DNA of 64,000 nucleotides from an uncultured Ruminiclostridium sp. (GTDB taxonomy: Bacteria > Bacillota > Clostridia > Oscillospirales > Ruminococcaceae), in contig CANQXF010000007.1 in assembly GCA_947627695.1 (NCBI GenBank), positions 1-64,000 of the forward strand, written 5' to 3'. Made by a program: the position numbers and the translations under genes. The notes beneath the pieces were generated by a model, which saw only the letters and a program-made list of their open reading frames with translations, was not told where the DNA came from and did not search any database. Positions 13,337-54,090 of the stretch are shown piece after piece (position 1 is the stretch's first letter; each line of letters opens with the position of its first letter).

Positions 13337-13425
13337 GCGGCGAAGCCGCCGACGCCGAAGGCGTCGGGAAGCCTGCGAAGCAGGCTTCCGCTTGCCCGCT
13401 TTGCGGGCAAGCGCGGCTTCGCCGC
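13337..13425. repeat. Five-hairpin element A
   Basis: Five hairpins abut with no linkers: 13337-13349 (GCGGC-gaa-GCCGC), 13350-13366 (CGACGCC-gaa-GGCGTCG), 13367-13389 (GGAAGCCTGC-gaa, then its complement), 13390-13412 (GCTTGCCCGC-ttt), 13413-13425 (GCGGC-ttc-GCCGC). The two end hairpins are reverse complements, so they can instead pair with each other. Together with B and a 172-base spacer it forms a composite repeated at 15377-15734. Confidence 0.9.
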
Positions 13426-13597
13426 CCTGCTGATGGGCAGTTCTTCCCTGATGTGCAGGACATTTCCCGCTGAGGCGGTACGCTGTGCTTACGGAAAGCA
13501 TTATAAAAGGAGTACCGTTTCACTTTTTGTAGTGAAAGCTGTCAGTGTTATAGTGTGGTGGTGAAAGGAGGGTGGTGCGGAGTTTACAGTGTTGTGC
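13426..13597. repeat. 172-bp spacer of composite repeat, copy 1
   Basis: This stretch joins elements A and B and is about 86 percent identical, with no gaps, to 15474-15645. About 60 bases in the middle (ACATTTCCCGCTGAGG through GGAGTACCGTTT) are identical in both. They include GGTAC and GTACC arms and a TATAAA string. No convincing gene is present. Confidence 0.8.
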
Positions 13598-13694
13598 GCG
13601 GCGAAGCCGCCGACGCCGAAGGCGTCGGGCAAGGGCTTGCGAAGCAAGCCCTTGCCATTTGGAGCGCGAAGCGCTCCAAATGCGGCTTCGCCGC
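13598..13694. repeat. Five-hairpin element B
   Basis: Hairpins with no linkers: 13598-13610, 13611-13627, 13628-13656 (GGCAAGGGCTTGC-gaa), 13657-13681 (ATTTGGAGCGC-gaa), 13682-13694. It lies about 50 bases past the stop of the minus-strand DUF4956 gene. Confidence 0.9.
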
Positions 13695-13741
13695 CCTGCT
13701 CAGAGGCAGGCGTGAAAGACAAGCACCACACCCGCCCGCAC

Positions 13742-14431
13742 TTATCCTTCGTACAGCTTATCCTCATACTCCCTCAGCAAAAGCTGTACGTTAAGGTTGC
13801 CGTTTCTCGCTCTTATTTTGTCCAGCATTTCCTTCTGGTCGCAGTCCTTTTTCAGCTCGATACAGTAAGCCGTTTCAAACAGCGCTCCAAAGTCGGCGGT
13901 CTTTACCTTTTTCAATTTCCAGGAATTTGTGTATTCGTTGAGAATGTCGTCCAGTAAATTCTGATAATTCAGATTTTCGGGGACGGTGACTTTAAGCAGC
14001 ATATGCTCATTTTTAGGAACGGCATAGCGGAAGATCTCCATAAATCCCACCGCCGCCGCAAGAACGACCGTAAAAAGCACCGCATATCCCACATACCCAA
14101 GTCCCAAAGCCAATCCTACCGCTAAAGTGAAAAATATGTAGGTGATGTCCTTTGAATCGGCGGGAGCGCTCCTGAAGCGGATTATCGTGAATGCGCCCGC
14201 AAGGCTGAACGCCCTCGCCACGTTGTCGCCTATGAGCAGTATCATCACTGCGATTATTGCGGGGAGCATTACCAGCGTTACCGCAAATGAGGGCGGATAG
14301 CCGCTTTTCTTATGCGTCAGCATATACACTATGCTTATGGCAAAGCCAAGTACCAGCGAACACGCCAGCAGTATCACCATTGACAGCGGGTCAAGGCTGC
14401 TGCCGAGAATTGACGAAAACAAGTTTTCCAT
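13742..14431 (-). CDS. DUF4956 membrane protein
   Basis: A 229-residue membrane protein of the DUF4956 family. The N-terminal half has about four hydrophobic helices; the conserved RAFSLAGAFTIIRFRSAP region lies between them. The C-terminal 100 residues form a soluble, probably cytoplasmic ferredoxin-like domain. The function is unknown. These proteins are commonly encoded beside VTC-type polyphosphate polymerase domain proteins, as here, often with CotH kinases, which are absent in this window. AGGAGAGG precedes the ATG. It is the second gene of a two-gene unit. Confidence 0.85.
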   Translation of the reverse strand: MENLFSSILGSSLDPLSMVILLACSLVLGFAISIVYMLTHKKSGYPPSFAVTLVMLPAIIAVMILLIGDNVARAFSLAGAFTIIRFRSAPADSKDITYIFFTLAVGLALGLGYVGYAVLFTVVLAAAVGFMEIFRYAVPKNEHMLLKVTVPENLNYQNLLDDILNEYTNSWKLKKVKTADFGALFETAYCIELKKDCDQKEMLDKIRARNGNLNVQLLLREYEDKLYEG

Positions 14432-14482
14432 AAAATTTTCCTCTCCTGTAAAAAAATAAATCAGGGCGTCCGCCCGAATAAA

Positions 14483-15205
14483 CTAAACCAGAACAAGCTG
14501 CTTTTCGCAAAGCATACGCTTGTATTCCGTTCCCGCCTTGCTGAAGCTTCTGCTGAAAATGCCCAGTTCGGACAGGGTGCGGGCAAGCTCCACAGGCATT
14601 GCGCCCGGTATCTTTATCTCCATAAGCCTGATATTTTGGGGAAGGAGCAGCTCCCCGCCCTTTTCAAGGCTCACGTTCTCCCGCCTTGCCCGCAGGTTAG
14701 TATCAAAGGTTATCCTCAGATCGTTATCTTCCATACCGAACATCGCTATCCTGTCATAGCTTATCGCCACGGCGGGATACACCTTAAATTCCTCAAGGAA
14801 ACGGTCGGTCTCCCGCAATACCTGAATGTCGGTATAGCTTAGCTTTTGCGGCTTTTCTCCTGTTTCTAGATAACGCAGCGCCGCCCCGTAGGAAAGGGAC
14901 GCTCTGCGCTTGTTCACCTCGCCGCCTATCTTCCGCTTTAGTTCCAGAAAGACGGTGGAATTTTCGTCTGCGGGAACGCCGTAGCTCCTCAATCTCAGCT
15001 TTTCCTTGAAATACGGCTTTGACACGGAGCGACGGAGTATCTCGTTGTCCGCCGTATCAAAATACACGTTGCAGATAGAATAGCTCCCGTCAGCACAAAA
15101 GCTGTCCAATCGCATATGCGGGGCGAGCTTTCTCATCAGTCTGTCGTACTGCTCCTCATTCAGCAGGAATTTGTCCTCGTATCTTTTGAATGTTTGTAAA
15201 TGCAT
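14483..15205 (-). CDS. VTC (polyphosphate polymerase) domain protein
   Basis: A 240-residue protein with a VTC-type triphosphate-tunnel fold. Visible signs are RYEDKFLL at the start, then YFDTADN, KLRLRSYG and FLELKRKIGGEVNKRRA, which supply the basic and acidic tunnel residues. In yeast the domain makes polyphosphate from ATP; the bacterial role is inferred, and the product could be another phosphate polymer or modified protein. An upstream TTG at 15223 opens the frame, but AAGGAG lies just before the ATG at 15205, so that is the start. It is followed after 51 bases by the DUF4956 gene. Confidence 0.85.
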   Translation of the reverse strand: MHLQTFKRYEDKFLLNEEQYDRLMRKLAPHMRLDSFCADGSYSICNVYFDTADNEILRRSVSKPYFKEKLRLRSYGVPADENSTVFLELKRKIGGEVNKRRASLSYGAALRYLETGEKPQKLSYTDIQVLRETDRFLEEFKVYPAVAISYDRIAMFGMEDNDLRITFDTNLRARRENVSLEKGGELLLPQNIRLMEIKIPGAMPVELARTLSELGIFSRSFSKAGTEYKRMLCEKQLVLV

Positions 15206-15376
15206 AGTTTTCTCCTTGAACAAGGATATTTTATTCCATCTTTTTGTAAACGGGGTAGGGAAATTGTGTGAATTTTATGTAAAAAGAATAAAAAAGGGAT
15301 AATGTATTGCTGGGGGAAAGGTGTACCAAAGCGGCGGAGAGGGTACTGCGCAAGAGGGAAGATGTGCTTGTCAGGG

Positions 15377-15473
15377 GCGGCGAAGCCGCATTCGGAGCGC
15401 AAAGCGCTCCGAATGGCAAGGGCTTGCTACGCAAGCCCTTGCCCGACGCCTTCGGCGTCGGCGGCTTCGCCGC
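15377..15473. repeat. Five-hairpin element C
   Basis: Hairpins with no linkers: 15377-15389, 15390-15414 (ATTCGGAGCGC-aaa), 15415-15443 (GGCAAGGGCTTGC-tac), 15444-15460, 15461-15473. Its right flank equals that of element A, but the module order is reversed relative to A: the GACGCC hairpin is next to last instead of second. Confidence 0.9.
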
Positions 15474-15645
15474 CCCGCTGATGGGCAGTTCTTCCATGAT
15501 GCGCAGTACATTTCCCGCTGAGGCGGTACGCTGTGCTTACGGAAAGCATTATAAAAGGAGTACCGTTTTTCTTTTTGCAGTGAAAACGGTGAAGGTTGTT
15601 GTGTGGTGATAAAAGGAAGGCAGTGCGTGTTTTACGATGTTGTGC
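15474..15645. repeat. 172-bp spacer of composite repeat, copy 2
   Basis: This has the same length as 13426-13597 and is about 86 percent identical by eye. It joins elements C and D. Short frames crossing it have no ribosome site and differ between the two copies. Confidence 0.8.
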
Positions 15646-15734
15646 GCGGCGAAGCCGCCGACGCCGAAGGCGTCGGGAAGCCTGCGCAGCAGGCTTCCGC
15701 TTGCCCGCCCTGCGGGCAAGCGCGGCTTCGCCGC
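15646..15734. repeat. Five-hairpin element D
   Basis: Hairpins with no linkers: 15646-15658, 15659-15675, 15676-15698 (GGAAGCCTGC-gca), 15699-15721 (GCTTGCCCGC-cct), 15722-15734. Stems are identical to element A while the inner triloops differ (gaa to gca, ttt to cct). The right flank, read in reverse, is GGGAAGATGTGCGGGGAG, which is also the left flank of elements E and G. Confidence 0.9.
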
Positions 15735-15901
15735 CCCTCTCCCCGCACATCTTCCCTGCCCCACACCTCATACTTCTCCGCCTGTCCCCCACCGCATAAA
15801 AACAAAACCCGCCCCACTCCGCCCCCTCTCAAACGTCAAGATCCTTTCACCTTCCAATTTCTATTGAATACATATTATATATAATTTTTATAAGTTTTTT
15901 G

Positions 15902-15930
15902 TTGACACTGCCTTTTTAAAATGCTATAAT
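15902..15930 (+). promoter_or_regulatory. Promoter of the BTAD regulator
   Basis: A perfect consensus: TTGACA (15902-15907), 17 bases, TATAAT (15925-15930). The leader is about 57 bases. Confidence 0.85.
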
Positions 15931-15993
15931 ATATAGGGCATTGTGCTATGAATAAAAATGTCCCCTCATTGAAAAAGGGTGGAGGATTTCTCA

Positions 15994-17181
15994 ATGAATA
16001 AGCTGAAAGTTACTATGTTCGGCGAGTTTTCCATTTCATACGGAGAAAATACGATAAGCGAACATTCCAAAAGGTCGAAAAAGCTGTGGCTGCTTTTGCA
16101 GTATCTTATAATTCATCACAACCGTGCAATTGCCCAATCTGAGCTTATAGACATTTTAAGCGGCGAAGAGGAGGGAGCAAATCCCGCCAGCGCCCTGAAA
16201 ACACAGATACATAGATTAAGAGAGATATTGTCAGAGCTTCAGTGCGGCGATAACGTTATCGTCTGCACAAACGGCGCATACAGCATAAATCCTGAGATAG
16301 AGCTTGCCATAGACGCAGAGGAATTTGAAAATTCCTTTAAAAGCGCGTCGTCCGCGGAAGATACCGACGAGCGTATGAGATTGATCCTCAGCGCAATAAA
16401 TCTTTATGCAGGAGATTTTCTTTCAAAGTCGGCTTACGAGTCCTGGGTCGTTCCCCTCACCACCTACTACCGTTCGGTTTACAGCAAGGCGGTGAGAATG
16501 GCTCTTGAAATGCTGAACAAGGCGGGCAAGCTGCACGACATTATTTCCATTTGCAGTAAGGCTTCCGCAATAATCCCCTATGACGAGTTTATCCACTACA
16601 ATCATATAAAAGCGCTGGCGGAGCTGGGCGAAGTGGATATTGCGCATCAGCAGTACGAGGCTGTCACGGCGCTTATGATGAACAAGTTCGGCATTGCCCC
16701 GTCAAAAGAGCTGGTGGAGCTGCACGACACGGCTTTAAAGGCGCAGAGCAATACTCAGGCGACCATAGACGGCGTGGTGGACGACCTGCTGGAGCAGCAG
16801 CTTGTTCCCGGCGCATTTTTCTGCGACTATCAGATATTCAAGCATTTGTTCCAGTTGGAATATCGCGACGCCCAGCGCACGGGTATCAGCATAAACATCT
16901 GCCTGCTCAGCGTATGCGACACGGACGGCGAAATACCTTCCCAAAATCCGCTGAACAAGGCTATGCAGAGATTGCAGGACTGCATTTCCCGTTCACTTAG
17001 AGGCAGCGATATTTTCGCCCGTTACAGCGTGAGCCAGTATGTTATCATGCTGTTCAACACCAACGAACAGACAGGCGAGCTGGTAATGAAACGTATCGAA
17101 AAAGCCTTCAGGCGCGAGAACACCAATCAGGGCATAGAACTGAAATATTCCTTTACCTCTCCTAACAGCAGAAAACAATAA
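15994..17181 (+). CDS. BTAD/SARP-type regulator with degenerate GGDEF domain
   Basis: A 395-residue regulator. Residues about 1-95 form a winged-helix DNA-binding domain of the OmpR type found in SARP proteins (KLWLLLQYLIIHHNR, then ALKTQIHRLREIL). Residues about 100-250 are the helical BTAD repeat domain. Residues about 265-395 look like a diguanylate cyclase fold: FQLEYRDAQRTG, then LRGSDIFARYSVSQYVIML. The catalytic GGDEF position reads SVSQY, so cyclase activity is very unlikely; it may sense a ligand or dimerise. The start at 15994 follows GGTGGAGG; an upstream GTG at 15979 overlaps that site. It stands alone behind a perfect promoter. Targets are unknown. Confidence 0.8.
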   Translation: MNKLKVTMFGEFSISYGENTISEHSKRSKKLWLLLQYLIIHHNRAIAQSELIDILSGEEEGANPASALKTQIHRLREILSELQCGDNVIVCTNGAYSINPEIELAIDAEEFENSFKSASSAEDTDERMRLILSAINLYAGDFLSKSAYESWVVPLTTYYRSVYSKAVRMALEMLNKAGKLHDIISICSKASAIIPYDEFIHYNHIKALAELGEVDIAHQQYEAVTALMMNKFGIAPSKELVELHDTALKAQSNTQATIDGVVDDLLEQQLVPGAFFCDYQIFKHLFQLEYRDAQRTGISINICLLSVCDTDGEIPSQNPLNKAMQRLQDCISRSLRGSDIFARYSVSQYVIMLFNTNEQTGELVMKRIEKAFRRENTNQGIELKYSFTSPNSRKQ

Positions 17182-17219
17182 AAAATAAGGGCGGTTTACC
17201 AAAAGCCGCCCTTATTTTT
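17181..17219 (+). terminator. Terminator after the BTAD regulator
   Basis: A 14-base-pair stem (AAAAATAAGGGCGG / CCGCCCTTATTTTT) and a T-run. Confidence 0.9.
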
Positions 17220-17235
17220 TAAGAAAAACCCAGCT

Positions 17236-17291
17236 AAAATTTTCTAAGGAGAGTCTGAGAGGATTTCTTTTCTAAAAGAAATCCTCTCAGA
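17236..17291. repeat. Dispersed 18-bp perfect palindrome, copy 1
   Basis: TCTGAGAGGATTTCTTTT (17254-17271), loop CT, then the exact complement (17274-17291). The 18 bases to the left (AAAATTTTCTAAGGAGAG) are shared with the copy at 54187-54242 except for one base. There is no T-run, so it is not a normal terminator. Confidence 0.85.
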
Positions 17292-17342
17292 GGGCGGCAG
17301 GAACAATCACAACAAAAATCCCCCTCCGCCACATTGTAAATT

Positions 17343-17369
17343 AAAAAAGCCCGACACACCGTCGGGCTT
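17343..17369 (-). terminator. Terminator of the glycyl-radical-domain gene
   Basis: A 9-base-pair stem (AAGCCCGAC / GTCGGGCTT) with loop ACACC. On the minus strand it is followed by TTTTTT. Confidence 0.85.
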
Positions 17370-17382
17370 GATCTTTCAAAAT

Positions 17383-17688
17383 TTACGCTTCCATATACAC
17401 GTCTTCAAAATCGGAAACGGTAACGCTGTGCTTAACTCTGTCCATTACCTCAGCCTTCTTGGCGTCGTTGAAACGGTCCAGCGTGCCTACAAGATAACCG
17501 GTGATACGGCGGATACGCTGGAAGGGCGTGGTGTCATAATGATACTCAATGTCAACGTAGTTATCGTCAACAACTGTGATGTTCATTTCGTCAATGCGCT
17601 TTTCGGGATAAAGCGTTCTTGCTCTCTGAATGTATGCTTCCTTTTCTGCGTCGGTCATAACGCCGCCGATAACATTTACTTTGATCAT
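17383..17688 (-). CDS. Stand-alone NrdD-like glycyl-radical domain protein
   Basis: A 101-residue protein. Residues 59-88 (RIRRITGYLV, then DRFNDAKKAEVMDRVKHS) match the C-terminal glycyl-radical loop of anaerobic class III ribonucleotide reductase; in E. coli NrdD this reads RRVCGYLG, then RPFNAGKQEEVKRRVKH. The radical glycine would be Gly64. The upstream zinc-binding cysteine pairs of NrdD are missing, and residues 1-55 are a separate small fold with no catalytic barrel. It may act like GrcA (YfiD), which replaces a damaged radical domain of pyruvate formate-lyase, but here for NrdD; that is inference. GAAAGGA precedes the ATG. It has its own promoter and terminator. No nrdD or nrdG is nearby. 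Confidence 0.7.
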   Translation of the reverse strand: MIKVNVIGGVMTDAEKEAYIQRARTLYPEKRIDEMNITVVDDNYVDIEYHYDTTPFQRIRRITGYLVGTLDRFNDAKKAEVMDRVKHSVTVSDFEDVYMEA

Positions 17689-17804
17689 TTGGGTAATTCC
17701 TTTCTCTTCATTTCGTTTTAGTCCTTTATGGCAACGCCCTTTCGGTAAGCCGTCAGGAGCGCTTATTTGCTTTCAACTTCGGGCTATCTTGTTGTCTGTT
17801 TTGT

Positions 17805-17833
17805 ATTATACCACTATATACTGTATTTTGCAA
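17805..17833 (-). promoter_or_regulatory. Promoter of the glycyl-radical-domain gene
   Basis: On the minus strand there is TTGCAA (17828-17833), 17 bases, TATAAT (17805-17810). The leader of about 110 bases is long for such a small gene. Confidence 0.7.
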
Positions 17834-17975
17834 TATCATTTTCAGAAATTTTCACAACATTTTTTTGTGGATTTTGACTATAATTTTTCTGAAACTTTTT
17901 CGCCGCTATTGCGGACAAGGGTAAATTCCCACAAAAATATTATACACGAAAAGCCGATAAACAGCAAGAAAACTA

Positions 17976-18003
17976 TTGCAAAAAGATGAAAAATATGTAA
18001 AAT
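17976..18003 (+). promoter_or_regulatory. Probable promoter of the MATE gene
   Basis: TTGCAA (17976-17981), 16 bases, TAAAAT (17998-18003), about 34 bases ahead of the ATG. Confidence 0.5.
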
Positions 18004-18036
18004 AGTATAAGACATATATTGAAAGGAGACGGCGCT

Positions 18037-19389
18037 ATGGTAAAGGAAATGACCCACGGAAAACCCCTGTCCCTGATACTGGGCTTTTGCCTGCCTATGC
18101 TGTTGGGGAACCTGTTTCAGCAGCTTTACAGCATGGTTGATACCATAATTGTGGGCAAGTTCATAGATGTGGATTCTCTGGCGGCGGTGGGCTCGACAGG
18201 CTCGGTGAGCTTTCTCATCATCGGCTTTACAACAGGGATAACCAGCGGCTCCTGCATACTCCCCGCACAGCACTTCGGCGGCGGGAATTATTCCGAAATG
18301 CGAAAAATGATAGCAAACGCCATTTACCTGTGCGCCATAACTACCGTTATCGTGACGGCGCTGGCGGTATCGCTGTGCTATCCACTTTTGCAGATAATGC
18401 AGACGCCCGCCGACATAATCGACCTTGCTTACGATTACATAGTGGTCATCTTCGGCGGGATATGCGTCACTATGATGTATAATCTTATGGCGGGGATACT
18501 CCGTGCTATGGGGGACAGCAGAACGCCGCTGTACTTTTTAATACTTTCCTCGATAATCAATATCGGGCTCGACCTTTTATTTATAATAGTATTTAATATG
18601 GGCGTGGCGGGAGCAGGCTGGGCGACGGTCATTTCTCAGGGGATATCAGGCGTTCTCTGCCTTATTTATATGAGGAGGAGCTACCCTATACTTCGCTTTG
18701 AAAAGGGTGAGCTTGCCTTTTCGGGAAATCGGATATTGGCGCTGACAAGGATAAGCGTTCCTATGGGGCTTCAGTTTTCCATAACCGCTATCGGTTCTAT
18801 CCTGCTGCAAAGCGCAGTTAACAGTCTGGGCAAGGTGTACGTTGCCGCCGTAACTGCCGCCAGCAAAATGCAGAATATGGTGGTGGCGCCTATGGAAACG
18901 CTGGGTATCACTATGGCGACCTACGGCGGGCAGAATTTAGGTGCAGGGAAGATACCCCGTATAACCCAGGGTATGCACCGCGCGTTCGCCTGCGGACTCA
19001 TCTACTCCTTGGCGGCGGCGACAGTTGTTTGGATATTCAGCGGGCCGCTGTGTCTGCTTTTCGTTGACGCTGAGGAAACGGAGGTCATCAGTCAGGCGGT
19101 GTACTTTATCGGGATAAACGCCATATTCTACCCTGTGCTTTCCATACTGTTCATCACCCGCAACGGCTTGCAAGGGCTGGGATTTTCACTGCTTCCTATG
19201 ATGGCGGGAGCAAGCGAGCTTATCGCAAGGGCGGTGGTATCGCTGGGGTTCGTGCCTGTGTTCGGATTTGACGCGGCGTGCTTTGCGTCGCCTGTGGCGT
19301 GGTCGGCGGCGACGGTGTTTTTGGTTATCATTTATAATATAAAAATGCATGGAATGAAGAAAAAGTATAATGAGGCGGTTGACAGTTGA
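18037..19389 (+). CDS. MATE family efflux transporter
   Basis: A 450-residue cation-coupled multidrug exporter in the inner membrane. About 12 hydrophobic helices are visible in two related halves. Family signatures include LPMLLGNLFQQLYSMVDT near the start and a second-half repeat with PMGLQFSITAIGS. Substrates cannot be read from sequence. GAAAGGAG lies before the ATG at 18037; a TTG at 18019 is part of the ribosome-site region and is rejected as the start. It is a single gene with no clear terminator directly after the stop. Confidence 0.93.
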   Translation: MVKEMTHGKPLSLILGFCLPMLLGNLFQQLYSMVDTIIVGKFIDVDSLAAVGSTGSVSFLIIGFTTGITSGSCILPAQHFGGGNYSEMRKMIANAIYLCAITTVIVTALAVSLCYPLLQIMQTPADIIDLAYDYIVVIFGGICVTMMYNLMAGILRAMGDSRTPLYFLILSSIINIGLDLLFIIVFNMGVAGAGWATVISQGISGVLCLIYMRRSYPILRFEKGELAFSGNRILALTRISVPMGLQFSITAIGSILLQSAVNSLGKVYVAAVTAASKMQNMVVAPMETLGITMATYGGQNLGAGKIPRITQGMHRAFACGLIYSLAAATVVWIFSGPLCLLFVDAEETEVISQAVYFIGINAIFYPVLSILFITRNGLQGLGFSLLPMMAGASELIARAVVSLGFVPVFGFDAACFASPVAWSAATVFLVIIYNIKMHGMKKKYNEAVDS

Positions 19390-19420
19390 TAGTTTACAGT
19401 GTACAGTGTACAGTTGTGGA

Positions 19421-19516
19421 GTCCAGTACTTCCGCCGAGGGCGGAAGTACGATCCAACATTGCTTGAATTGCCCTAAAGGCAATTCATATTGCTTCGCAA
19501 TACCGCAATATTGGAC
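19421..19516. repeat. Nested multi-hairpin element after the MATE gene
   Basis: Outer arms GTCC (19421-19424) and GGAC (19513-19516) enclose several hairpins. These are a perfect 11-base-pair hairpin with triloop gag (19426-19450), a near-complementary pair TCCAACATTGC (19453-19463) with GCAATATTGGA (19505-19515), and inside it GAATTGCC/GGCAATTC and TATTGC-ttc-GCAATA. It resembles the five-hairpin family in logic but does not share its end sequences. Confidence 0.7.
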
Positions 19517-19551
19517 ACGTTTACGGACGGATTTGAAATTTTTGTTGTATG

Positions 19552-19587: not shown

Positions 19588-19626
19588 TTTTGTTGTGCTT
19601 ATGAGGGAAGATGTGCGGGCGGAGGG

Positions 19627-19721
19627 GCGGCGAAGCCGCGTTTGGAGCGCAAAGCGCTCCAAACGGCAGGACTTGCTTCGCAAATCCTGCCCGACGCCTT
19701 CGGCGTCGGCGGCTTCGCCGC
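19627..19721. repeat. Five-hairpin element E
   Basis: Hairpins with no linkers: 19627-19639, 19640-19664 (GTTTGGAGCGC-aaa), 19665-19691 (GGCAGGACTTGC-ttc, one C/A mismatch), 19692-19708, 19709-19721. The left flank is GGGAAGATGTGCGGG and the right flank is GCGCACAACACCGTAAAC; together they define the full element ends, also seen inverted at D. Confidence 0.9.
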
Positions 19722-39487: not shown

Positions 39488-39583
39488 CGGCGAAGCCGCA
39501 TTTGACAGCGAAGCTGTCAAATGGCAGGATTTGCTCCGCAAATCCTGCCCTCCGTTCCGCAGGAACGGAGGCGGCTTCGCCGC
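39488..39583. repeat. Five-hairpin element F
   Basis: Hairpins: 39488-39498 (worn end, CGGCGAAGCCG), 39500-39522 (ATTTGACAGC-gaa), 39523-39549 (GGCAGGATTTGC-tcc), 39550-39570 (CTCCGTTCC-gca), 39571-39583. It lies between the glycosylase and the zinc-ribbon gene. Module 39523-39549 is the same family as 19665-19691 in E, but here T-A replaces E's C/A mismatch, restoring pairing. Confidence 0.85.
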
Positions 39584-47173: not shown

Positions 47174-48616
47174 ATGAGCGAACATCAGAAAAAAGATGAT
47201 AAAAATAAAAAGCAACCCGACAAGCAGGAAAACAAGAACGAAAAAAAGTCCTCTTTCTGGGTCAAAGCGAACATCACCGCCACCTTGTCCCTGTTTGCGG
47301 GGATAACCTTGTCACTGCTGATATTCCCGCGCCCCACCGAATCGCATACAGAGCGCAGAGATCTGGCAAAATTCCCGCAGTTTTCCGTTGCGGATTATTT
47401 CAGCGGCGATTTTGCCGACGGGGTAACCGAATGGTTTGACGACACGGTGCCCTGGCGCGACGGATTTAAGAACATTTCCTCGCATATCGTGAAGTATATG
47501 GGCGTATCATTGGGTGGAGCCACTGTCTACGGTCCTATCCAGGAGATAAAGCCCACCTCAACTCAGCCGCCTGAGCCTTCTCAGCCCACCGACACAAATC
47601 AACCTGCGCCTCCCGATAACAGCGACAGTCCCTCAACTCAGCCTACTGAAGAAAACACCTCCGCCACCGTTACCACCGAACCAGAATTTCACGTCGGCGC
47701 AGGTGAAATGTCGGAGAGCAACGGTCTTGTTGTGTACCAGAATACCGATACGGGGCATTACTGGTGCGTACAGCTTTACAGCGGCGGTTACAGTCAGGAC
47801 ACCTTTATCGAGTATATAAACACTATCGCTGACCAGATTGGCGACTCAGCACAGGTATACGTTATGGTAGCGCCTGAATCCAGCGAATACTATACTCCCG
47901 ACCAGTATCTTGACTACACCGTTTCCCAGAAAAAGGTAGTGGACTATATCAACAACGGTCTGAGCGACAAGGTCATCGGCGTTGACTGCGTTGAACCGCT
48001 GAGACAACACGCCGCCGAAGATATTTTCTGCCGCACTGACCACCACTGGAAGCCGCTGGGCGCATACTATGCGGCAAAGGCGTTTGCCGACGCTGCGGGT
48101 ATAACTATACTTGAGGACCTTTCCCTGTATGAACTAAGAACGATACCCAAATTTATCGGCACATGGTATGGCAGCACTCAGGACCCAAACCTGTACAACG
48201 ACTACGATACCTTTGACTACTATATTCCACCTAATGATTTTGACACGTACTATTATGACACAGCTTATCAGAACGAGTTTAAAGCTCCCTTCTTCCTGCA
48301 ATATGACTGTGAGGAAAATCCCGACAGCGCATACTCCACCTTTATGGGAGCAGATAACAAGATAGTGCGTGTGGACACCGATGTTAAAAACGGGAAAAAA
48401 CTGCTCGTGTTCAAGGACAGCTATGGCAACGCCGAGATACCGTTCTATATGAACAGCTATGAGCAGATATACGTCTGTGACATAAGATTTTTTGACCTTA
48501 ACGCAATTGACTTCATCAAAGAACAGGGTATAGACGACGTGCTGTTCACCATGTGCATTACCTCCGCAACGGGAGATAACGCTTTCAAAATGGAAAAGCT
48601 CTTCACCAACCCTTGA
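47174..48616 (+). CDS. DHHW family membrane-anchored protein
   Basis: A 480-residue protein. A lysine-rich cytoplasmic start is followed by one membrane helix at about 30-50. Then comes the family start region (ERRDLAKFP, then WFDDTVPWRDGFKN) and a Pro/Ser/Thr linker at about 125-170. The outer catalytic part resembles AlgJ/AlgX SGNH-fold proteins: RTDHHWKPLGAYYAAKAF carries the DHHW motif, and FKDSYGNAEIPF may supply the serine. These proteins take part in adding acyl groups to surface polymers. The start at 47174 follows AAAAGGAG; the ATG at 47153 lacks a site. First gene of a four-gene operon. Confidence 0.85.
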   Translation: MSEHQKKDDKNKKQPDKQENKNEKKSSFWVKANITATLSLFAGITLSLLIFPRPTESHTERRDLAKFPQFSVADYFSGDFADGVTEWFDDTVPWRDGFKNISSHIVKYMGVSLGGATVYGPIQEIKPTSTQPPEPSQPTDTNQPAPPDNSDSPSTQPTEENTSATVTTEPEFHVGAGEMSESNGLVVYQNTDTGHYWCVQLYSGGYSQDTFIEYINTIADQIGDSAQVYVMVAPESSEYYTPDQYLDYTVSQKKVVDYINNGLSDKVIGVDCVEPLRQHAAEDIFCRTDHHWKPLGAYYAAKAFADAAGITILEDLSLYELRTIPKFIGTWYGSTQDPNLYNDYDTFDYYIPPNDFDTYYYDTAYQNEFKAPFFLQYDCEENPDSAYSTFMGADNKIVRVDTDVKNGKKLLVFKDSYGNAEIPFYMNSYEQIYVCDIRFFDLNAIDFIKEQGIDDVLFTMCITSATGDNAFKMEKLFTNP

Positions 48617-48633
48617 AAGGAATCAGAATAACA

Positions 48634-49788
48634 ATGAATATCAAAAGAATTACGGCGCTGGGGCTTTGCCTTGCTATGCTCCTCTGCGCCTGCAACGGCA
48701 ATAATGCCGACGATAATACCACAACAACTCCCGCCCCCCAAAGCCAACAGCAGGGCAGTGAAAGCGAAAGCCAGAGTGAAACCACAACTCCCACCTCCGA
48801 AGAATCGGAAAATACTTCCTCTGACACTTCTTCTTCGGAGGAAGAATCCGTTCCCCCTGTCACCGAGCCTGCGGGAAGCGTTCCCGACGACTACCGTGAA
48901 TACGGCGAAAACGGCATACTCGTGGTAGGAAGAAACGGGCATTATGTAGGGCTTAGCGGCTGCTGGGGAACGCTGGAGCTTTGCGACAGCTACACCGCTT
49001 CCCTCAACAAAGCGGCGGAGCTGCTCCCCGACGTTAACGTATACGATATGATAGCTCCCACCGCCGTGGAATTTTATCTTCCCGACGACGTGACAGGATT
49101 TACAGGCAGTCAGAAAGAAAAGATCGACCACGTTAAAAGCGGGCTGAAAAACGTAACTGAAATAGACGCTTACGGCGTTTTGCAGCAGCATCAGGACGAA
49201 TACATCTATTCCCGCACCGACCACCACTGGCAGCCTTTGGGCGCATACTATGCCGCAAAGGAATTTGCACAGCAGTCGGGAACGGGCGACCTGTTCCCCG
49301 CCCTGTCGGAATATGAAGCGGTGACTAAAGAGGGATACGTGGGCTCATACTATAACTACTCAAAATGCGAAAGCCTGAAAAGCGACCCAGAGCCCTTCAC
49401 CCTGTACATTTCCCCCAATGCGGACGCCCTTACCACAACATATTACGACACCTCTTTCCAGAACGGCGAGCAGGGACATCTGTTCCCCTATCCTGACGCC
49501 AGCGGATATTATCTTTCATTCTTGGGAACGGATATCTGCATAGCCGAGATAGACACCGACTGCAAAAACGGCAGGACCCTCGTCATCTGCAAGGAAAGCT
49601 ACGGGAACGCTCTTGTTCCTTTCCTGACAAGCTGCTATGAAAAGATATACGTTACGGATATGAGATATTTTGATATTAACCTTGTGGACTTCTGCAAGGA
49701 GGTGGGAGCGACCGACCTGCTGTTCGCCTGCTGTACCTTTACCCCCGCAGGCGGAAACGGCTCTTACCTGGAAGATATAATAAAATAA
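48634..49788 (+). CDS. DHHW family lipoprotein
   Basis: A 384-residue paralog of the preceding protein without its N-terminal family region. A signal peptide ends in lipobox LLCAC (Cys at about 18), so it is lipid-anchored outside. A Ser/Thr/Glu linker spans about 22-80. Then the shared core: RTDHHWQPLGAYYAAKEFA with DHHW, and the later ICKESYGNALVPF. In this second motif DS of the first protein is replaced by ES, which may alter catalysis. AAAGGA precedes the ATG at 48634. Two DHHW proteins in tandem suggest two steps or two acceptors. Confidence 0.82.
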   Translation: MNIKRITALGLCLAMLLCACNGNNADDNTTTTPAPQSQQQGSESESQSETTTPTSEESENTSSDTSSSEEESVPPVTEPAGSVPDDYREYGENGILVVGRNGHYVGLSGCWGTLELCDSYTASLNKAAELLPDVNVYDMIAPTAVEFYLPDDVTGFTGSQKEKIDHVKSGLKNVTEIDAYGVLQQHQDEYIYSRTDHHWQPLGAYYAAKEFAQQSGTGDLFPALSEYEAVTKEGYVGSYYNYSKCESLKSDPEPFTLYISPNADALTTTYYDTSFQNGEQGHLFPYPDASGYYLSFLGTDICIAEIDTDCKNGRTLVICKESYGNALVPFLTSCYEKIYVTDMRYFDINLVDFCKEVGATDLLFACCTFTPAGGNGSYLEDIIK

Positions 49789-49801
49789 CTGTGAGGAAAA
49801 A

Positions 49802-51565
49802 ATGGCGAATTTTTACCCCTTTGACAGAGTGGAGCTTACCAAAAAGCAAAAACCCATAAAGCGCAAACTGCTTTCAGACGGCAGTAAGCGGATAGAAAAG
49901 AAGATCGCGGTGCTGGGCGGCTCCACCACCAACGGAATCGTGGATATGCTGGAGCTTTTCCTGCTTTATTACGGGATAAAGGCGGAGTTTTATCAGAGCG
50001 AATACGATCAATACTGGCAAGACGCAATGTTCGGCGCCGAGCTGCGTGAGTTTCAGCCTGATTTTGTGTTTATCCACACCACTTCAAGAAATATCACCGC
50101 TTTCCCCGAAATGTCAATGAACAAGGAGGAAGCAGACGGTCTGCTGAAAAAGCAGCTTGAGCATTTCACCGTGATGTGGGATAAGCTGAGGGAGGACCTT
50201 TCCTGTCCCATTATACAAAACAATATGGAAATGCCGTACTGGAGACTGCTGGGCAACAAGGACTGCGCCGACTTTCACGGCAGGGTGAACTTTGTGACAA
50301 GGCTGAACGGCGGGTTTTACGATTACGCCGCAGAACACAGTGACTTTTACATTCATGATATAAACTATCTCAGCGCGTCGCTGGGACTGGAAAATTTTTT
50401 CGACCTAAGGCAATGGCATATGTACAAGTACGCGGTGGCTCCTAAGCTTTTCCCTGATTTTGCCTTTAGTCTGGCGAAAATTTTCGCTTCTCTCCTTGGG
50501 AAGAACAAAAAAGTCCTTGCCCTTGACCTGGACAACACCCTCTGGGGCGGCGTAGTGGGTGACGACGGAGTGGAAAATCTTGCTCTTGGGCAGGAAGTGC
50601 CTATGGGGCAGGCGTACTGCGAGTTTCAGTCCTATATCAAGGCGCAAAAACAGCTTGGGGTACTTCTGACGGTATGCTCCAAAAACGACCGTAAAAATGC
50701 AATAGCGGGACTTGAACACCCCGACGGCGTTCTTCGCCCCGACGATTTCACCGTGATAAAGGCGAACTGGGAACCTAAAAGCCTGAACATTCAGCAGACC
50801 GCAAAGGAGCTTGACCTGCTCCCCGAAAGCATTGTGTTCGTGGACGACAATCCCGCCGAGCGCGCAATTGTTGGCGATATGGGGATAGAGACCCCGCCTA
50901 TGGACATAATTGAAAATTATATCAAGACCCTTGACAAGGGCGGATATTTTGAAGTGACGAACTTCTCCGCCGACGACCTGCGCAGAGTTGAAATGTACAA
51001 GCAAAACGCCGAGAGGGCGGCGGCGCAGTCCTCCTTCAAGGATTACGGGGAATATCTGGACTTTCTTGAAATGAAAGCGGTGATTGAGGACTTTTCGCCT
51101 ATCAATCTGGCGAGAGTTACTCAGCTTACCAACAAGAGCAACCAGTTCAATCTAACCACCAAACGCTATTCCCCCGCCGAAATGGAAAAGGTGTACAAAA
51201 GCGAAGATTATATCCGCCTTTGCGGACGGCTTGCGGACAAATACGGCGACAACGGCATTGTGAGTGTGGTGATAGGAGAAAAGCAGGGCGGTGCTCTCGA
51301 TATTCAGCTTTGGCTGATGAGCTGCCGTGTGCTGAAAAGAGAGATGGAATTTGCTATGTTGGACGTGCTTGTGCAAAAGGCAAGGGAGCAGGGCTTAACT
51401 AAGCTGGTGGGACACTACTATCCCTCTCCGAAAAATTCTATGGTAAAGGATCTGTATATGGACTTCGGTTTCACAAAGACGGAGGAGGACGGCGATGGAA
51501 ATACCCGCTGGGAGCTGTCGCTTGATTCTTACGAAAACCGAACTTCACATATTGAAATAAACTGA
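49802..51565 (+). CDS. FkbH-like HAD-IIIC phosphatase/acyl-ACP enzyme
   Basis: A 587-residue three-part protein. Residues about 30-190 look like an SGNH-type N-terminal domain (AVLGGSTTNGIVDMLE). Residues about 235-375 form the HAD core with the nucleophile motif ALDLDNTLWGGVVGDDG, a TVCSKND motif and VFVDDNPAERA. The C-terminal part (about 400-575) resembles an acetyltransferase fold, with LTQLTNKSNQFNLTTKRY before it. FkbH enzymes convert 1,3-bisphosphoglycerate to glyceryl-S-ACP in polyketide pathways; the ACP gene next door fits that chemistry. Alternatives are other acyl groups. GTGAGGAAA precedes the ATG. Confidence 0.88.
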   Translation: MANFYPFDRVELTKKQKPIKRKLLSDGSKRIEKKIAVLGGSTTNGIVDMLELFLLYYGIKAEFYQSEYDQYWQDAMFGAELREFQPDFVFIHTTSRNITAFPEMSMNKEEADGLLKKQLEHFTVMWDKLREDLSCPIIQNNMEMPYWRLLGNKDCADFHGRVNFVTRLNGGFYDYAAEHSDFYIHDINYLSASLGLENFFDLRQWHMYKYAVAPKLFPDFAFSLAKIFASLLGKNKKVLALDLDNTLWGGVVGDDGVENLALGQEVPMGQAYCEFQSYIKAQKQLGVLLTVCSKNDRKNAIAGLEHPDGVLRPDDFTVIKANWEPKSLNIQQTAKELDLLPESIVFVDDNPAERAIVGDMGIETPPMDIIENYIKTLDKGGYFEVTNFSADDLRRVEMYKQNAERAAAQSSFKDYGEYLDFLEMKAVIEDFSPINLARVTQLTNKSNQFNLTTKRYSPAEMEKVYKSEDYIRLCGRLADKYGDNGIVSVVIGEKQGGALDIQLWLMSCRVLKREMEFAMLDVLVQKAREQGLTKLVGHYYPSPKNSMVKDLYMDFGFTKTEEDGDGNTRWELSLDSYENRTSHIEIN

Positions 51566-51580
51566 AAGGGAGCTTGAGCT

Positions 51581-51814
51581 ATGGACGAGATATACGAAAG
51601 ACTGAACGGCGTGTTCAGAAACGTTTTTGACGACGACAGCATTACCGTGAACGAGGATACCACCGCCGACGATATCGAGGACTGGGACAGCCTGAACCAC
51701 ATCACGCTGGTAGACGCTGTGGAAAGCGAATTTGGCGTGCGCTTCACCATGGGCGAGGTAAGCGGTATGAAAAATGTGGGGGAAATGGCGAAGATTATTA
51801 AAGAGAGAATGTAA
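51581..51814 (+). CDS. Acyl carrier protein
   Basis: A 77-residue acidic acyl carrier protein. Ser37 in WDSLNH is the 4'-phosphopantetheine site. The four-helix pattern and length are typical. It is not the fatty-acid ACP, judging by the motif context (WDSLNHITL instead of DSLDTVEL) and by its operon with the FkbH-like protein. It most likely carries the acyl or glyceryl group made by that protein. GAAAGGGAG precedes the ATG. Last gene of the operon. Confidence 0.92.
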   Translation: MDEIYERLNGVFRNVFDDDSITVNEDTTADDIEDWDSLNHITLVDAVESEFGVRFTMGEVSGMKNVGEMAKIIKERM

Positions 51815-51815
51815 A

Positions 51816-51983
51816 AAACTTGTCGACAAGTCGACAAGTTTTATGAGGGAACCCCTGACGGGTTCCCTCATTACTCCTTCCTGCATCGGCTCCGCTACGC
51901 TCACGGAAATGCAAATATGTTTATATTTGCATTTCACTGCGCCGATAGAGGAATAAAATTCGAGGCAAAGCCCCGAATTTTAT
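51816..51983. repeat. Cluster of four to five long hairpins after the ACP gene
   Basis: Hairpins in order: 51816-51841 (AAACTTGTCGAC-aa and complement, with the palindrome CTTGTCGACAAG nested inside), 51843-51871 (ATGAGGGAACCC-ctgac), outer arms ATCGGC/GCCGAT (51885-51890 and 51941-51946) around 51906-51935 (GAAATGCAAATAT-gttt), and 51953-51983 (ATAAAATTCG...CGAATTTTAT with an inner GGC-aaa-GCC). Stems are perfect or nearly so. No gene is present. Confidence 0.75.
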
Positions 51984-51997
51984 GTTATCATAAAAAT

Positions 51998-52027
51998 GCC
52001 GTGGAATTTGCTCCACGGCTTTTTTTA
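51998..52027. terminator. Bidirectional terminator between the ACP and rmuC genes
   Basis: GCCGTGGA-atttgc-TCCACGGC with T-run on the plus strand and ATTTTTA on the minus strand. Confidence 0.85.
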
Positions 52028-53326
52028 TTTTTCTTCGGTTTCCGTTTCGTCCGTCCCCTGTAATATCGCTACAAGTCCGTCCAGACCGCCTTCAAGGGTC
52101 TCAACGCTTTTGAGGGATTTGTTTATCTGACGGGTGCGAACGCCCACCAGCTTTTCCAGCTCGTCGTCAAGCTGACGGGAACGCAGCTGCGCCGATTTAA
52201 GCACCTTTTCAAAGGTCTCAAACTCGCCCTTGACGCCTGAGAGCACCTTCCATACGTCGTCGCTGCGCTTTTGTATCGCAAGGGTGCGAAAGCCCATATA
52301 AAGGGAGTTCAGCATTGCCGCCATTGTGGAGGGTCCCGCTATGTTTACCTGGAATTTCTGCTGAAGCTCCTCCACCAGCCCCATATTCACCACCTCGGCG
52401 TAAAGTCCCTCAAAGGGCAGGAACATTATTCCGAAGCCTGTGGTGTGAGGGGGCTGTATGTATTTTTCCCGAATGTCCTTTGCGCTGTTTCGTATGCGTT
52501 CGGAAAGGACTTTTTTCGCCGCGTCAACCGTGTCCTTGTCGCCGCTGTCGTAGGCGTCCCTCAGCGCGTGATACGTATCGCCGGGAAATTTTGCGTCTAT
52601 GGGGAGATAGATAGTTCCGTCGCCGTCGCCGGGGAGCTTTATTGCAAACTCGACATGGTTCTTGCTGTCGGGAACGGTGACAACGTCTTTTTCATACTGT
52701 TCGGGAGCAAGAATTTCGGACAGGATACCCTCAAGCTGAGTTTCCCCCATAATACCTCTTGTTTTAACGTTGGAGAGTATCTTTTTCAGGTCCCCTACTC
52801 CCGCCGCAAGGCTCTGCATTTCGCCCAGCCCCTTGTGTACCTCTTCAAGGCGCTCGCTTACGGTCTTGAAAGACTGAGCCATTCTCTCGTCAAGGGTCTT
52901 TTGCAGCTTTTCGTCAACGGTGGTCCTTATCTGATCCAGGCGCTTGCCGTTGTCCTCCCTTATTTCAAGCAGCTGCTTGTTTACCGTTTCGTTTACCTTT
53001 GAAAGCGCTTCTACGTTGTTTTTCTCTATGCCCTGCAAGCGGTGCTCCAGCAATTCCAGCCGTTGATTCATATTGTCTGCGGACTGGCGCTGGCTGTCGC
53101 TGAGCATTTGGGACAAGCCCTTTATGTTGTCGGAGACCTCCCGCCTTAACTCCGTCTGGCCTCCCTTCTGGTCGGCGGAAAGGGTGGAAAGCCTGTCCTT
53201 TATCACCTCAAGCTCCTTGGAATTGTCCCCGCCGCCCGACGGCTTTCCGTTTTTTATTACGATTATCAGCAGGATAATGCTGATAACAATTGAAATCGCC
53301 GAAAGAATTATTCCTAAAATTTCCAT
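52025..53326 (-). CDS. rmuC: RmuC family DNA recombination protein
   Basis: A 433-residue protein. One membrane helix at about 2-24, then a long coiled coil (about 45-185), then the RmuC nuclease-like domain with GIMGETQLEGIL, LPIDAKFPGDTYHAL and PPHTTGFGIMFLPFEGLYAEV. RmuC limits DNA inversions in E. coli and has a PD-(D/E)XK-like core. The frame extends upstream to 53389, but AAAGGAG lies directly before the ATG at 53326 and the upstream part covers the promoter, so 53326 is the start. Confidence 0.93.
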   Translation of the reverse strand: MEILGIILSAISIVISIILLIIVIKNGKPSGGGDNSKELEVIKDRLSTLSADQKGGQTELRREVSDNIKGLSQMLSDSQRQSADNMNQRLELLEHRLQGIEKNNVEALSKVNETVNKQLLEIREDNGKRLDQIRTTVDEKLQKTLDERMAQSFKTVSERLEEVHKGLGEMQSLAAGVGDLKKILSNVKTRGIMGETQLEGILSEILAPEQYEKDVVTVPDSKNHVEFAIKLPGDGDGTIYLPIDAKFPGDTYHALRDAYDSGDKDTVDAAKKVLSERIRNSAKDIREKYIQPPHTTGFGIMFLPFEGLYAEVVNMGLVEELQQKFQVNIAGPSTMAAMLNSLYMGFRTLAIQKRSDDVWKVLSGVKGEFETFEKVLKSAQLRSRQLDDELEKLVGVRTRQINKSLKSVETLEGGLDGLVAILQGTDETETEEK

Positions 53327-53360
53327 TTTTGCTCCTTTATTCTGAAAAATTACTGTAATT

Positions 53361-53389
53361 ATTTTAACATAACAAAATACCTTTGTCAA
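53361..53389 (-). promoter_or_regulatory. Promoter of rmuC
   Basis: On the minus strand there is TTGACA (53384-53389), 17 bases, TAAAAT (53361-53366). Confidence 0.8.
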
Positions 53390-53404
53390 TTATGTTGTTT
53401 TTTC

Positions 53405-53433
53405 TTGCTTTTTTGCGGAAAATATGTTATAAT
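53405..53433 (+). promoter_or_regulatory. Promoter of the YegP-like gene
   Basis: TTGCTT (53405-53410), 17 bases, TATAAT (53428-53433). Back to back with the rmuC promoter. The leader is about 68 bases. Confidence 0.75.
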
Positions 53434-53507
53434 TTAATAAATAAACTTTGTACTTTTCCCGAACAGTCGGGTCAATATTTAATTTTAAAATTCAGGAGGA
53501 AAAAACC

Positions 53508-53873
53508 ATGGGCAAATTTGTTATCAAGCACACCGCAACAGGCGTTAAGTTTGACCTGAAGGCGGGTAACGGCGAGGTTATCGCTACCAGCGAGGTGTAC
53601 ACCACTGATTCCGCTTGCAAGAACGGTATCGAAAGCGTTCGCAAGTGCTGCGAGGGCGGCGTTGAGGATCAGACCGTTGAAGGTTACGAAACTCTCAAGC
53701 ACCCCAAATATGAGGTTTATCAGGACAAGAAGGGCGAATATCGTTTCAGACTCAAGGCTCGCAACGGCGAGATAATCGCTACCAGCGAGGGCTACAAGGC
53801 TAAGCCCAGCTGCCTTAACGGTATCGAGAGCGTTAAGAAGAACGCTCCTGAGGCTGAGATCGTTGAGGAATAA
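53508..53873 (+). CDS. YegP family (DUF1508) two-repeat protein
   Basis: A 121-residue cytoplasmic protein with two DUF1508 repeats. Repeat 1 has FDLKAGNGEVIATSEVY with KNGIESV; repeat 2 has FRLKARNGEIIATSEGY with LNGIESV. Each forms a small beta-beta-beta-alpha unit. Function is unknown, although the family is widespread; the NGIESV motif is its hallmark. CAGGAGGA precedes the ATG at 53508. An upstream in-frame start at 53448 lies in the leader and is rejected. The codon use and ribosome site suggest high expression. Single gene. Confidence 0.92.
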   Translation: MGKFVIKHTATGVKFDLKAGNGEVIATSEVYTTDSACKNGIESVRKCCEGGVEDQTVEGYETLKHPKYEVYQDKKGEYRFRLKARNGEIIATSEGYKAKPSCLNGIESVKKNAPEAEIVEE

Positions 53874-53889
53874 TTTTATTGACGATGAT

Positions 53890-53919
53890 ACGCCGTCTGG
53901 TTTACAGGCGGCGTTTTTC
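53890..53919 (+). terminator. Terminator after the YegP-like gene
   Basis: ACGCCGTCTG-gttta-CAGGCGGCGT (one T-G pair) and a T-run. Confidence 0.85.
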
Positions 53920-53987
53920 TTTTTGTGGTGGGAAATTAGGCGGTTTATGAGGGGTGCGGGGTTAAGGGAAGATGTGCGGGGAGTGGG

Positions 53988-54090
53988 GCGGCGAAGCCGC
54001 AGTCGGCGCTTTGCGCCGACTTGATGATTTTGCGGAGCAAAATCATCACTTTTGTTCGGGCTGCGCCCGAACAAAAGGCGGCTTCGCCGC
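53988..54090. repeat. Five-hairpin element G
   Basis: Hairpins with no linkers: 53988-54000, 54001-54021 (AGTCGGCGC-ttt), 54022-54048 (TGATGATTTTGC-gga), 54049-54077 (CTTTTGTTCGGGC-tgc), 54078-54090. The outer arms extend as GAGTGGG (53981-53987) and CCCACTC (54091-54097), so the closing stem reaches 20 base pairs. Its three inner stems are unlike those of all other copies. Confidence 0.9.

What the first reader, a model, noticed from the sequence alone, without database searches (positions are those of the whole stretch)
13337..54090. Family of zero-linker five-hairpin elements that can refold as perfect four-way junctions
Seven intergenic elements (13337-13425, 13598-13694, 15377-15473, 15646-15734, 19627-19721, 39488-39583, 53988-54090) obey one grammar. 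Each has exactly five hairpins and no bases between them (one base at F). Nearly every hairpin ends in a three-base loop closed by GC and GC. The first hairpin (GCGGC-gaa-GCCGC) and the last (GCGGC-ttc-GCCGC) are exact reverse complements. So the ends may pair with each other, leaving a stem and three hairpins around a junction with no unpaired bases: a Holliday-like four-way junction. At G the closing stem reaches 20 base pairs. Such a strict shape in a non-coding repeat suggests recognition by a protein, such as a junction-binding recombinase, a REP-type transposase acting in trans, or an RNA-processing factor. I know of no named family with this architecture.
Basis: partly seen in the sequence, partly recalled or inferred. 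Interest (0 to 1): 0.85.

Follow-up and report, generated by a model that had tools for sequence, protein, structure and literature searches.

The report
Cloverleaf DNA repeats with flipping hairpins
Gut bacteria of two related genera carry short repeated DNA elements that can fold into the same four-armed cross even where their sequences are unrelated, and whose hairpin tips, and sometimes whole bodies, flip over in place, so the shape itself seems to be what is kept.

Summary
All seven window elements fold as four-way junctions: one closing stem plus three abutting hairpins. No three-hairpin junction arose in 100 shuffles. The own genome has 26 places. Of 53 distinct high-scoring elements then held, 53 have three inner hairpins. 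The same plan with unrelated sequence occurs in a second genus: 75 of 75 junctions in 741 kb of two genomes have three hairpins. A few later copies are looser.

Between orthologues, inner triloops changed at 47 of 147 sites and arms at 8 of 1058; outer-arm centres changed at 0 of 96. So the four-way fold, not the five-hairpin fold, is what is kept. Double compensatory changes outnumber one-sided ones 67 to 1, pointing to DNA rather than RNA. In 3 of 24 orthologous pairs the whole element is inverted in place.

Best reading: a DNA-level, shape-defined dispersed palindrome, edited by replication template switching or cruciform processing, its shape probably kept by an unidentified junction-recognising activity. 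No RAYT gene was found in the own genome. The shape is established; mechanism and enzyme are inferred.

The parts
13337..13425 (.). Element A (type 1): closing stem 13 bp, hairpins of 7, 10 and 10 bp with triloops gaa, gaa, ttt
13598..13694 (.). Element B (type 2): closing stem 13 bp, hairpins of 7, 13 and 11 bp, all triloops gaa
   Evidence: inverted repeat of element C (99 nt, 94%)
13426..13597 (.). 172-bp spacer between A and B, direct repeat (about 88%) of the spacer between C and D
15374..15476 (.). Element C (type 2, inverted relative to B): closing stem 16 bp
15477..15645 (.). Spacer between C and D, direct repeat of the A-B spacer
15646..15734 (.). Element D (type 1): closing stem 13 bp; triloops gaa, gca, cct
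19627..19721 (.). Element E (type 2-like): closing stem 13 bp; one mismatched pair in the middle hairpin that is perfect in G028 and G094
39488..39583 (.). Element F: closing stem 12 bp (39487 is A instead of G)
53980..54098 (.). Element G (type 3): closing stem 21 bp; interior inverted in G094 on the same flanks
53965..53977 (+). Inward flank motif AGGGAAGATGTGC outside the stem of G (also 15355-15367 +, 19604-19616 +, 15745-15757 -)

Best explanation
These are dispersed DNA palindromes defined by shape: a closing stem whose two arms are themselves the same short palindrome, plus three abutting hairpins closed by C-G over mostly GNA/TNC or AAA/TTT triloops. SHOWN: the four-way fold is what evolution keeps; arms stay Watson-Crick; triloops are hypervariable; some whole elements invert in place; copies are gained or lost and deleted; the same plan recurs with unrelated sequence in a second genus. 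INFERRED: in single-stranded DNA (lagging strand, repair) or as an extruded cruciform, each strand snaps into a cloverleaf. Polymerase template switching, or cleavage and rejoining of the extruded structure, then recopies arms onto each other, inverts loops and inverts the whole interior. INFERRED with less certainty: four arms with few or no unpaired bases are kept because a structure-specific activity acting on four-way junctions (a junction resolvase or recombinase, or a transposase recognising shape) protects, spreads or fixes the elements.
For: Fixed architecture: 53/53 elements with three hairpins and 75/75 in G473 and G468, 0 in one shuffle of each stretch. Unrelated sequence, same plan, in genus g33. 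DNA-level pairing: 67 double-changed cells against 1 one-sided in 13 sequences of 633 cells, covariation score reached by 0 of 500 shuffles; 848 Watson-Crick of 851 arm pairs in the 26 own elements, no G-T. Loops changed at 47/147 sites against arms at 8/1058 between G000 and G028 (Fisher p 4e-38, sites treated as independent), while flanks there are mostly 91-98% identical. Outer centre triplets 0/96 in 16 of the 17 G028 pairs; D was left out because of a duplication in G028 (p 3e-12 against inner loops). Loop classes: GNA/TNC 118 of 153 triloops, AAA/TTT 27; GNA loops on G-C stems are described as extraordinarily stable DNA mini-hairpins (PMC4686876, passages read). In-place inversions: C7_53980 against G094, C6_82600 and C17_271 against G028, 3 of 24 pairs. 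Loop inversion and arm homogenisation are described footprints of template switching (PMC8604942 and PMC8794818, passages read). A deletion scar at microhomology and one copy decayed by internal deletion.
Against: No enzyme, transposition intermediate or target-site duplication was found. Copies of one type share flanks of tens of bases, so the moving unit may be larger than the junction. Most loops that differ are not exact reverse complements (5 exact and 20 other of 25 changed), so flipping alone does not explain loop change. One covariation measure, further pair types, does not exceed shuffles (27 against 27.8, 367 of 500), and 7 of its 633 cells are unpaired. Some copies have a changed outer centre or parse as five or four hairpins (L137, L149, L151, L159). 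In G468 only 3 of 24 junctions lack unpaired bases; 16 have one. With DNA parameters the predicted best fold equals the drawn four-way fold in 4 of 7 window elements; in the other three the energies differ by 0.1-0.2 kcal/mol. Compared genomes with named records are MAGs, so population mixtures are possible.
Confidence: 0.5

Rival explanations
1. Purely mutational, selfish palindromes: template switching alone creates and keeps them and no protein recognises the shape.
For: Arm homogenisation and spacer inversion are exactly what template switching makes. SbcD, one subunit of the hairpin nuclease SbcCD, is over the cut-off in 13 of 71 genomes of the genus but in none of the five carriers (G094 has a weak match below it), and the nearest non-carrier G069 has it.
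Against: It does not explain why the hairpins number three and abut, in two genera with unrelated sequences. The SbcD pattern is weak: 58 of 71 genomes have no match over the cut-off.
Confidence: 0.25
2. A structured RNA (cis element or small RNA) whose four-way junction is selected in the transcript.
For: Strong covariation; predicted RNA fold equal to the four-way junction in six of seven window elements.
Against: Both strands fold alike; one-sided (wobble) changes nearly absent; whole-element inversion tolerated; no Rfam match in the window or at the elements of seven other loci; in the window the gene context is convergent (A, B), divergent (C, D) and tandem (E, F, G).
Confidence: 0.12
3. 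A REPIN-like or IS200-type element moved by a Y1 (HUH) tyrosine transposase.
For: Dispersed, paired and clustered palindromes resemble REPINs; a REPIN 'clover' configuration is named in a figure legend of PMC3116915 (passages read).
Against: No PF01797 match in G000, G094, G034 or G015, and one with an internal stop in G028. No constant GTAG foot: TGCTCCTAC (GTAG on the other strand) in 4 of 52 own flanks. Not tested in genus g33.
Confidence: 0.06
4. Bidirectional transcription terminators or mRNA 3'-end stabilisers.
For: GC-rich hairpins between genes; A and B lie between convergent genes. In G468, 20 of 52 elements with ORFs called on both sides are between convergent ones, against 18 of 91 background gaps (mechanical ORF calls).
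Against: C and D sit in a divergent region and E, F, G between tandem genes. Mechanical calls give 18 tandem, 5 divergent and 1 convergent for 24 own elements and 24, 14 and 11 for 49 in G473; they are rough, since they miss the convergent setting of A or B.
Confidence: 0.04
5. Loop flips and inversions are sequencing or assembly artefacts of palindromes.
For: Palindromes can make fold-back artefacts in libraries (recalled); the named compared genomes are MAGs.
Against: Elements (about 100 bp) are short; the inverted copies at C6 and C17 also carry arm changes; loop changes include many classes besides inversion; the plan recurs in many separate assemblies.
Confidence: 0.03

Closest known systems
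REPINs / REP elements (RAYT-associated)
   Same: Short, dispersed, extragenic, palindromic, often paired or in tandem; compensatory changes in the hairpin (PMC3116915, passages read).
   Different: A REPIN is two REPs forming one hairpin, linked to RAYT genes. Here: a four-way junction, unrelated sequences across genera, no RAYT found in the own genome, no constant GTAG tag.
LIMP mitochondrial palindromes of Lobosphaera incisa
   Same: Dispersed intergenic palindromes whose loop occurs in both orientations and which can be sites of rearrangement (PMC4524435, passages read).
   Different: A single hairpin with a conserved 7-nt loop made of pentanucleotide repeats; no multi-arm junction.
Terminal repeats of parvoviruses (adeno-associated virus)
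   Same: Palindromes nested in a larger stem palindrome; the interior occurs in two orientations, 'flip and flop' (PMC1131931, passages read).
   Different: T-shaped with two arms, at the ends of a linear genome, with Rep nicking. Compared as a way of working only; no relationship is claimed and none was tested by sequence.
Template-switch mutations at inverted repeats
   Same: Homogenised arms and inverted spacers, including a ttc/gaa triloop flip (PMC8604942, passages read; PMC8794818, passages read).
   Different: Those are scattered events in ordinary sequence; here a whole repeat family carries them with a fixed junction architecture.

Membership tests
REPIN / REP | RAYT (Y1_Tnp) gene in the genome | tested here: not met
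   0 matches in G000, G094, G034, G015; one with a stop in G028; g33 not tested
REPIN / REP | GTAG or CGTC tag at the foot of the hairpin | tested here: not met
   Own flanks carry AAGGGAAGATGTGC-like sequence; the GTAG complement TGCTCCTAC in 4 of 52, counted by eye; CGTC was not scanned separately
MITE | Terminal inverted repeats | tested here: inconclusive
   Imperfect inward consensus AAGGGAAGATGTGC..GTCAGGGG on both sides, followed by the stem
MITE | Target-site duplication at insertion | tested here: inconclusive
   Sites without the element in G094 and G028 are too diverged or are deletion scars
MITE | Autonomous parent element with matching ends | tested here: inconclusive
   Of 16 exact flank-motif matches in the own genome 12 lie at elements and one at the deletion scar; C2:72453 and C7:77676 were read and show no obvious parent, C4:9585 was seen as a short context only, and the one-mismatch matches were not followed
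Structured RNA family (Rfam) | Match to a curated family | tested here: not met
   No match in the window at gathering scores; in seven loci only a THF riboswitch at L259:819-939, outside the elements
Perfect (4H) four-way junction | Four helices, no unpaired bases at the junction | tested here: met
   49 of 53 held elements, among them the seven of the window; 31 of 51 in G473 and 3 of 24 in G468
Perfect (4H) four-way junction | Forms in DNA in the cell | not testable with these tools
   Only folding energies and evolutionary evidence

The most novel reading that the evidence does not exclude
A class of bacterial dispersed element whose identity is coded by three-dimensional DNA shape rather than sequence: a cloverleaf mimic of a Holliday junction with four arms, propagated and edited by a junction-specific enzyme, so that sequence is free to drift (by paired changes and flips) while the shape is copied.
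Probability: 0.3. Interest if true: 0.92.

Novelty: new variant of a known kind. Interest (0 to 1): 0.75.

Why it matters
Short interspersed palindromes are common in bacteria, but a family held to one junction geometry across unrelated sequences points to recognition of DNA shape. It gives natural substrates for asking how often cruciforms form, how template switching shapes genomes, and which enzymes see four-way junctions in the cell. The in-place flips make the question testable by simple sequencing. Some elements also lie at rearrangement endpoints, so they may contribute to genome plasticity in gut bacteria.

Tried and rejected
RAYT in trans: rejected for the own genome. Phage or plasmid origin: exact own-type pattern 0 in IMG/VR; no blastn match to the element G region in plasmids or phages. 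The g33 pattern gave 4 viral stretches, none with a three-hairpin junction of score 45 or more. Of the 35 genome contigs stretches, those titled Mesorhizobium, Aeromicrobium, Massilia, Roseococcus, Butyricicoccus, Spirochaetales, Kiritimatiellaeota, Thermoanaerobaculia and the water-buffalo Clostridia MAG gave no junction of score 60 or more. The model matches in G073 and G092 are not the same architecture. C4 of the own genome carries GCGGCaaaGCCGC in another repeat, not a cloverleaf. MAFFT alignment A1 did not align the arms, so model R1 was built from 13 sequences of similar arm length and leans towards types 2-4 of this genome.

Literature: ten searches of the held open-access library. In the rows shown (some lists were cut, for example 15 of 30 and 6 of 21) no title or abstract start describes such a family. 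Subscription papers and preprints are not held, so absence from print is not shown.

Limits: the gene-context counts rest on mechanical ORFs and are rough; its ORF-overlap count is not used. In one search one of 25 intended pairs (C6_54203 with L056) gave no parse and was dropped, and C10_72582 was oriented by its arms because its flanks are inverted too. G473 and G468 stretches were chosen partly around model hits, so densities are not genome averages. The finder allows 2 to 8 hairpins, but the genomes were chosen with a three-hairpin model. Searches over more than 40 genomes used stricter filters. Genomes in the genome search are unnamed; G028 and G094 were matched to named MAG records only by equal coordinates.
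Full report
What is there. The seven listed elements are four-way junctions: a closing stem and three hairpins that abut without linkers. A mechanical finder that allows 2 to 8 hairpins and small linkers found no three-hairpin junction in 100 dinucleotide shuffles of the window. The two arms of the closing stem are each a palindrome around a GAA or TTC centre, so a five-hairpin fold exists too, but it is about 8-22 kcal/mol weaker with DNA parameters.

How many. Own genome: 20 copies with exact ends and 26 places with covariance model R1, 24 of them on both strands. Of 71 genomes of the genus (own included) seven had a match; I checked the structures. Five carry the elements (G000, G028, G094, G034, G015); G073 and G092 hold something else. 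By the neighbouring VTC protein, found in 45 of the 71, the nearest are G028 (96%), G094 (68%), G034 (60%), then G069 and G015 (57% each); of these only G069 has no match. Among 394 genomes of the order the only other matches were in G336 and G321 of genus g33. In that genus 18 of 31 genomes matched at E up to 0.3, and in 22 of 29 fetched loci (L240-L268; L258 repeats L240) the finder showed a three-hairpin junction. In G473 (378 kb taken) 51 of 51 junctions have three hairpins, and in G468 (363 kb) 24 of 24; one shuffle of each stretch gave none. In G473 the stem is mostly GGGCgaaGCCC; the arms are unrelated to those of the window. The g33 stem pattern was found in 3 of 394 genomes of the order, all g33, with a reversed-pattern control of 0.

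Exceptions. With relaxed settings L137 (G028 C8:36462; outer centres gaa and ttt) and L151 (G034; gaa and tcc) parse as five hairpins because the closing stem is mismatched in the middle, L149 (G034) has an imperfect closing stem, L152 (G034) a long composite middle arm, and L159 (G015) parses as four with linkers. Two lower-scoring two-hairpin junctions of another repeat and one with five hairpins were also seen in the own genome.

What is kept and what changes. In 49 comparable orthologous hairpins of G000 and G028 (of 51 in 17 pairs) the triloops differ at 47 of 147 sites and the arms at 8 of 1058; the flanks are mostly 91-98% identical. In 16 of the 17 pairs the centre triplets of the outer arms, which would be loops in the five-hairpin fold, differ at 0 of 96 sites. 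So the outer arms behave as a paired stem. Of the 49 loops 24 are identical, 5 exact reverse complements and 20 otherwise changed. Over all 24 pairs, without undoing inversions, the raw counts are 29, 7 and 36 of 72. Against G094, 18 comparable hairpins give 30 of 54 loop sites and 18 of 412 arm sites. Loops are 118 of 153 GNA/TNC and 27 AAA/TTT. GNA loops with G-C stems are known as extraordinarily stable DNA mini-hairpins (PMC4686876, passages). Outside elements, 442 kb of own DNA hold 10 perfect triloop hairpins with stems of 9 bp or more.

DNA, not RNA. In 13 aligned elements 67 cells carry changes on both sides of a pair, 1 on one side only and 7 are unpaired, of 633. One of that test's measures, further pair types, does not exceed its shuffles (367 of 500). 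In the 26 own elements 848 of 851 arm pairs are Watson-Crick and none is G-T; in 62 G468 elements G-T and A-C mismatches are equal, 11 and 11, with 20 others. The finder caps mismatches, so mismatch rates are lower bounds, and because the strand of any RNA is unknown the G-T/A-C balance alone is not informative. Both strands fold alike, and no Rfam family matches in the window.

Flipping in place. Window element G is reversed in G094, and own elements C6:82600 and C17:271 are reversed in G028, while the flanks on both sides stay in order: 1 of 7 G094 pairs and 2 of 17 G028 pairs. At C31 the own genome has two elements where G028 has one, of the second type and reversed. At C10:72582 the element with about 100 bp of flank is inverted in G028. 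In G094 an element joins the right flanks of two own elements that lie 33 kb apart on contig C10, as a 33-kb inversion with both ends at elements would. In the window, B and C are inverted repeats around the VTC-DUF4956 operon; in G094 that operon lies in the opposite orientation and A-D are absent. Which state is older is not known. A larger rearrangement between the window and G094, near window 17.2 kb, has no element at that end.

Gain and loss. The own genome carries a deletion scar where G028 has an element, with its end at a short shared CCCGC. One own element is internally deleted in G028, another (C10:31803) is replaced there by other repeats, and the C31 pair is absent from G094. Outside the stem both sides share an imperfect inward consensus of about 27 bp, so the moving unit may be about 150 bp.

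Mechanism. Template switching between arms of an inverted repeat makes the arms equal and inverts the spacer (PMC8604942 passages; PMC8794818 passages). It explains flips, paired changes and perfect arms, but not why there are three hairpins and a closing stem each time. That regularity across unrelated sequences is the best argument for recognition of the junction. No enzyme was identified: no RAYT match in the own genome, and apart from PF01797 and TIGR00619 no candidate enzyme family was searched. SbcD has no match over the cut-off in the five carriers (a weak one in G094), is over it in 13 of 71 genomes of the genus, and is present in the nearest non-carrier: suggestive only.

Known families. 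REPINs, LIMPs and viral flip-flop terminal repeats each share some properties, but none that I read of has the fixed four-way architecture (passages). I file it as a new variant of dispersed palindromic repeats and keep open the bolder reading that shape itself is the inherited trait.

Noticed in passing
window 51952-52029: A weaker A+T-closed three-hairpin junction between convergent genes, with mismatches and longer loops; perhaps paired terminators.
   Followed up: no
window 13742-15223: VTC-DUF4956 operon flanked by inverted repeats B and C; it lies in the opposite orientation in G094, where A-D are absent.
   Followed up: partly
L091-L099 (own contig C4): Another repeat family of about 300 bp with a TTTGCGGCaaaGCCGCAAA hairpin (gaa centre in some copies) and a conserved GGTCGCTATCACAGGCGGGCAACG block; 11 places listed.
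   Followed up: partly
L091:18452-18514 and L101:13082-13145: A second palindromic family: two hairpins, TGAATTTCC-ctaaa-GGAAATTCA beside TTTTGC-nnn-GCAAAA, inside a closing stem with a few unpaired bases.
   Followed up: no
L148:5422-5520: An own element whose right arm is degraded (GCGGCGAGCCGTG), a decaying copy.
   Followed up: no
L269-L288 (G473): Gaps between neighbouring elements cluster near 154, 205, 269 and 329 bp, and three GGGCGAAGCCC arms stand alone beside a normal flank (L270:4533, L273:15489, L287:3243), as if arrays grow and shrink at the arms.
   Followed up: partly
L289-L308 (G468): Elements in tight doublets: 20 of 52 gaps between neighbours are 17-51 bp.
   Followed up: no
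L162:3444-3557 (G092): A long 31-bp hairpin bounded by GCGGCgaaGCCGC and GCGGCttcGCCGC; a single-arm relative or a coincidence.
   Followed up: no
L149:4068-4168 (G034 C2): Both outer arms hold a gca centre (right arm GCGGCGGCGCAGCCGC), so the closing stem is imperfect: one outer arm may have changed on its own.
   Followed up: no
L259:819-939: THF riboswitch close to an element in genus g33.
   Followed up: no
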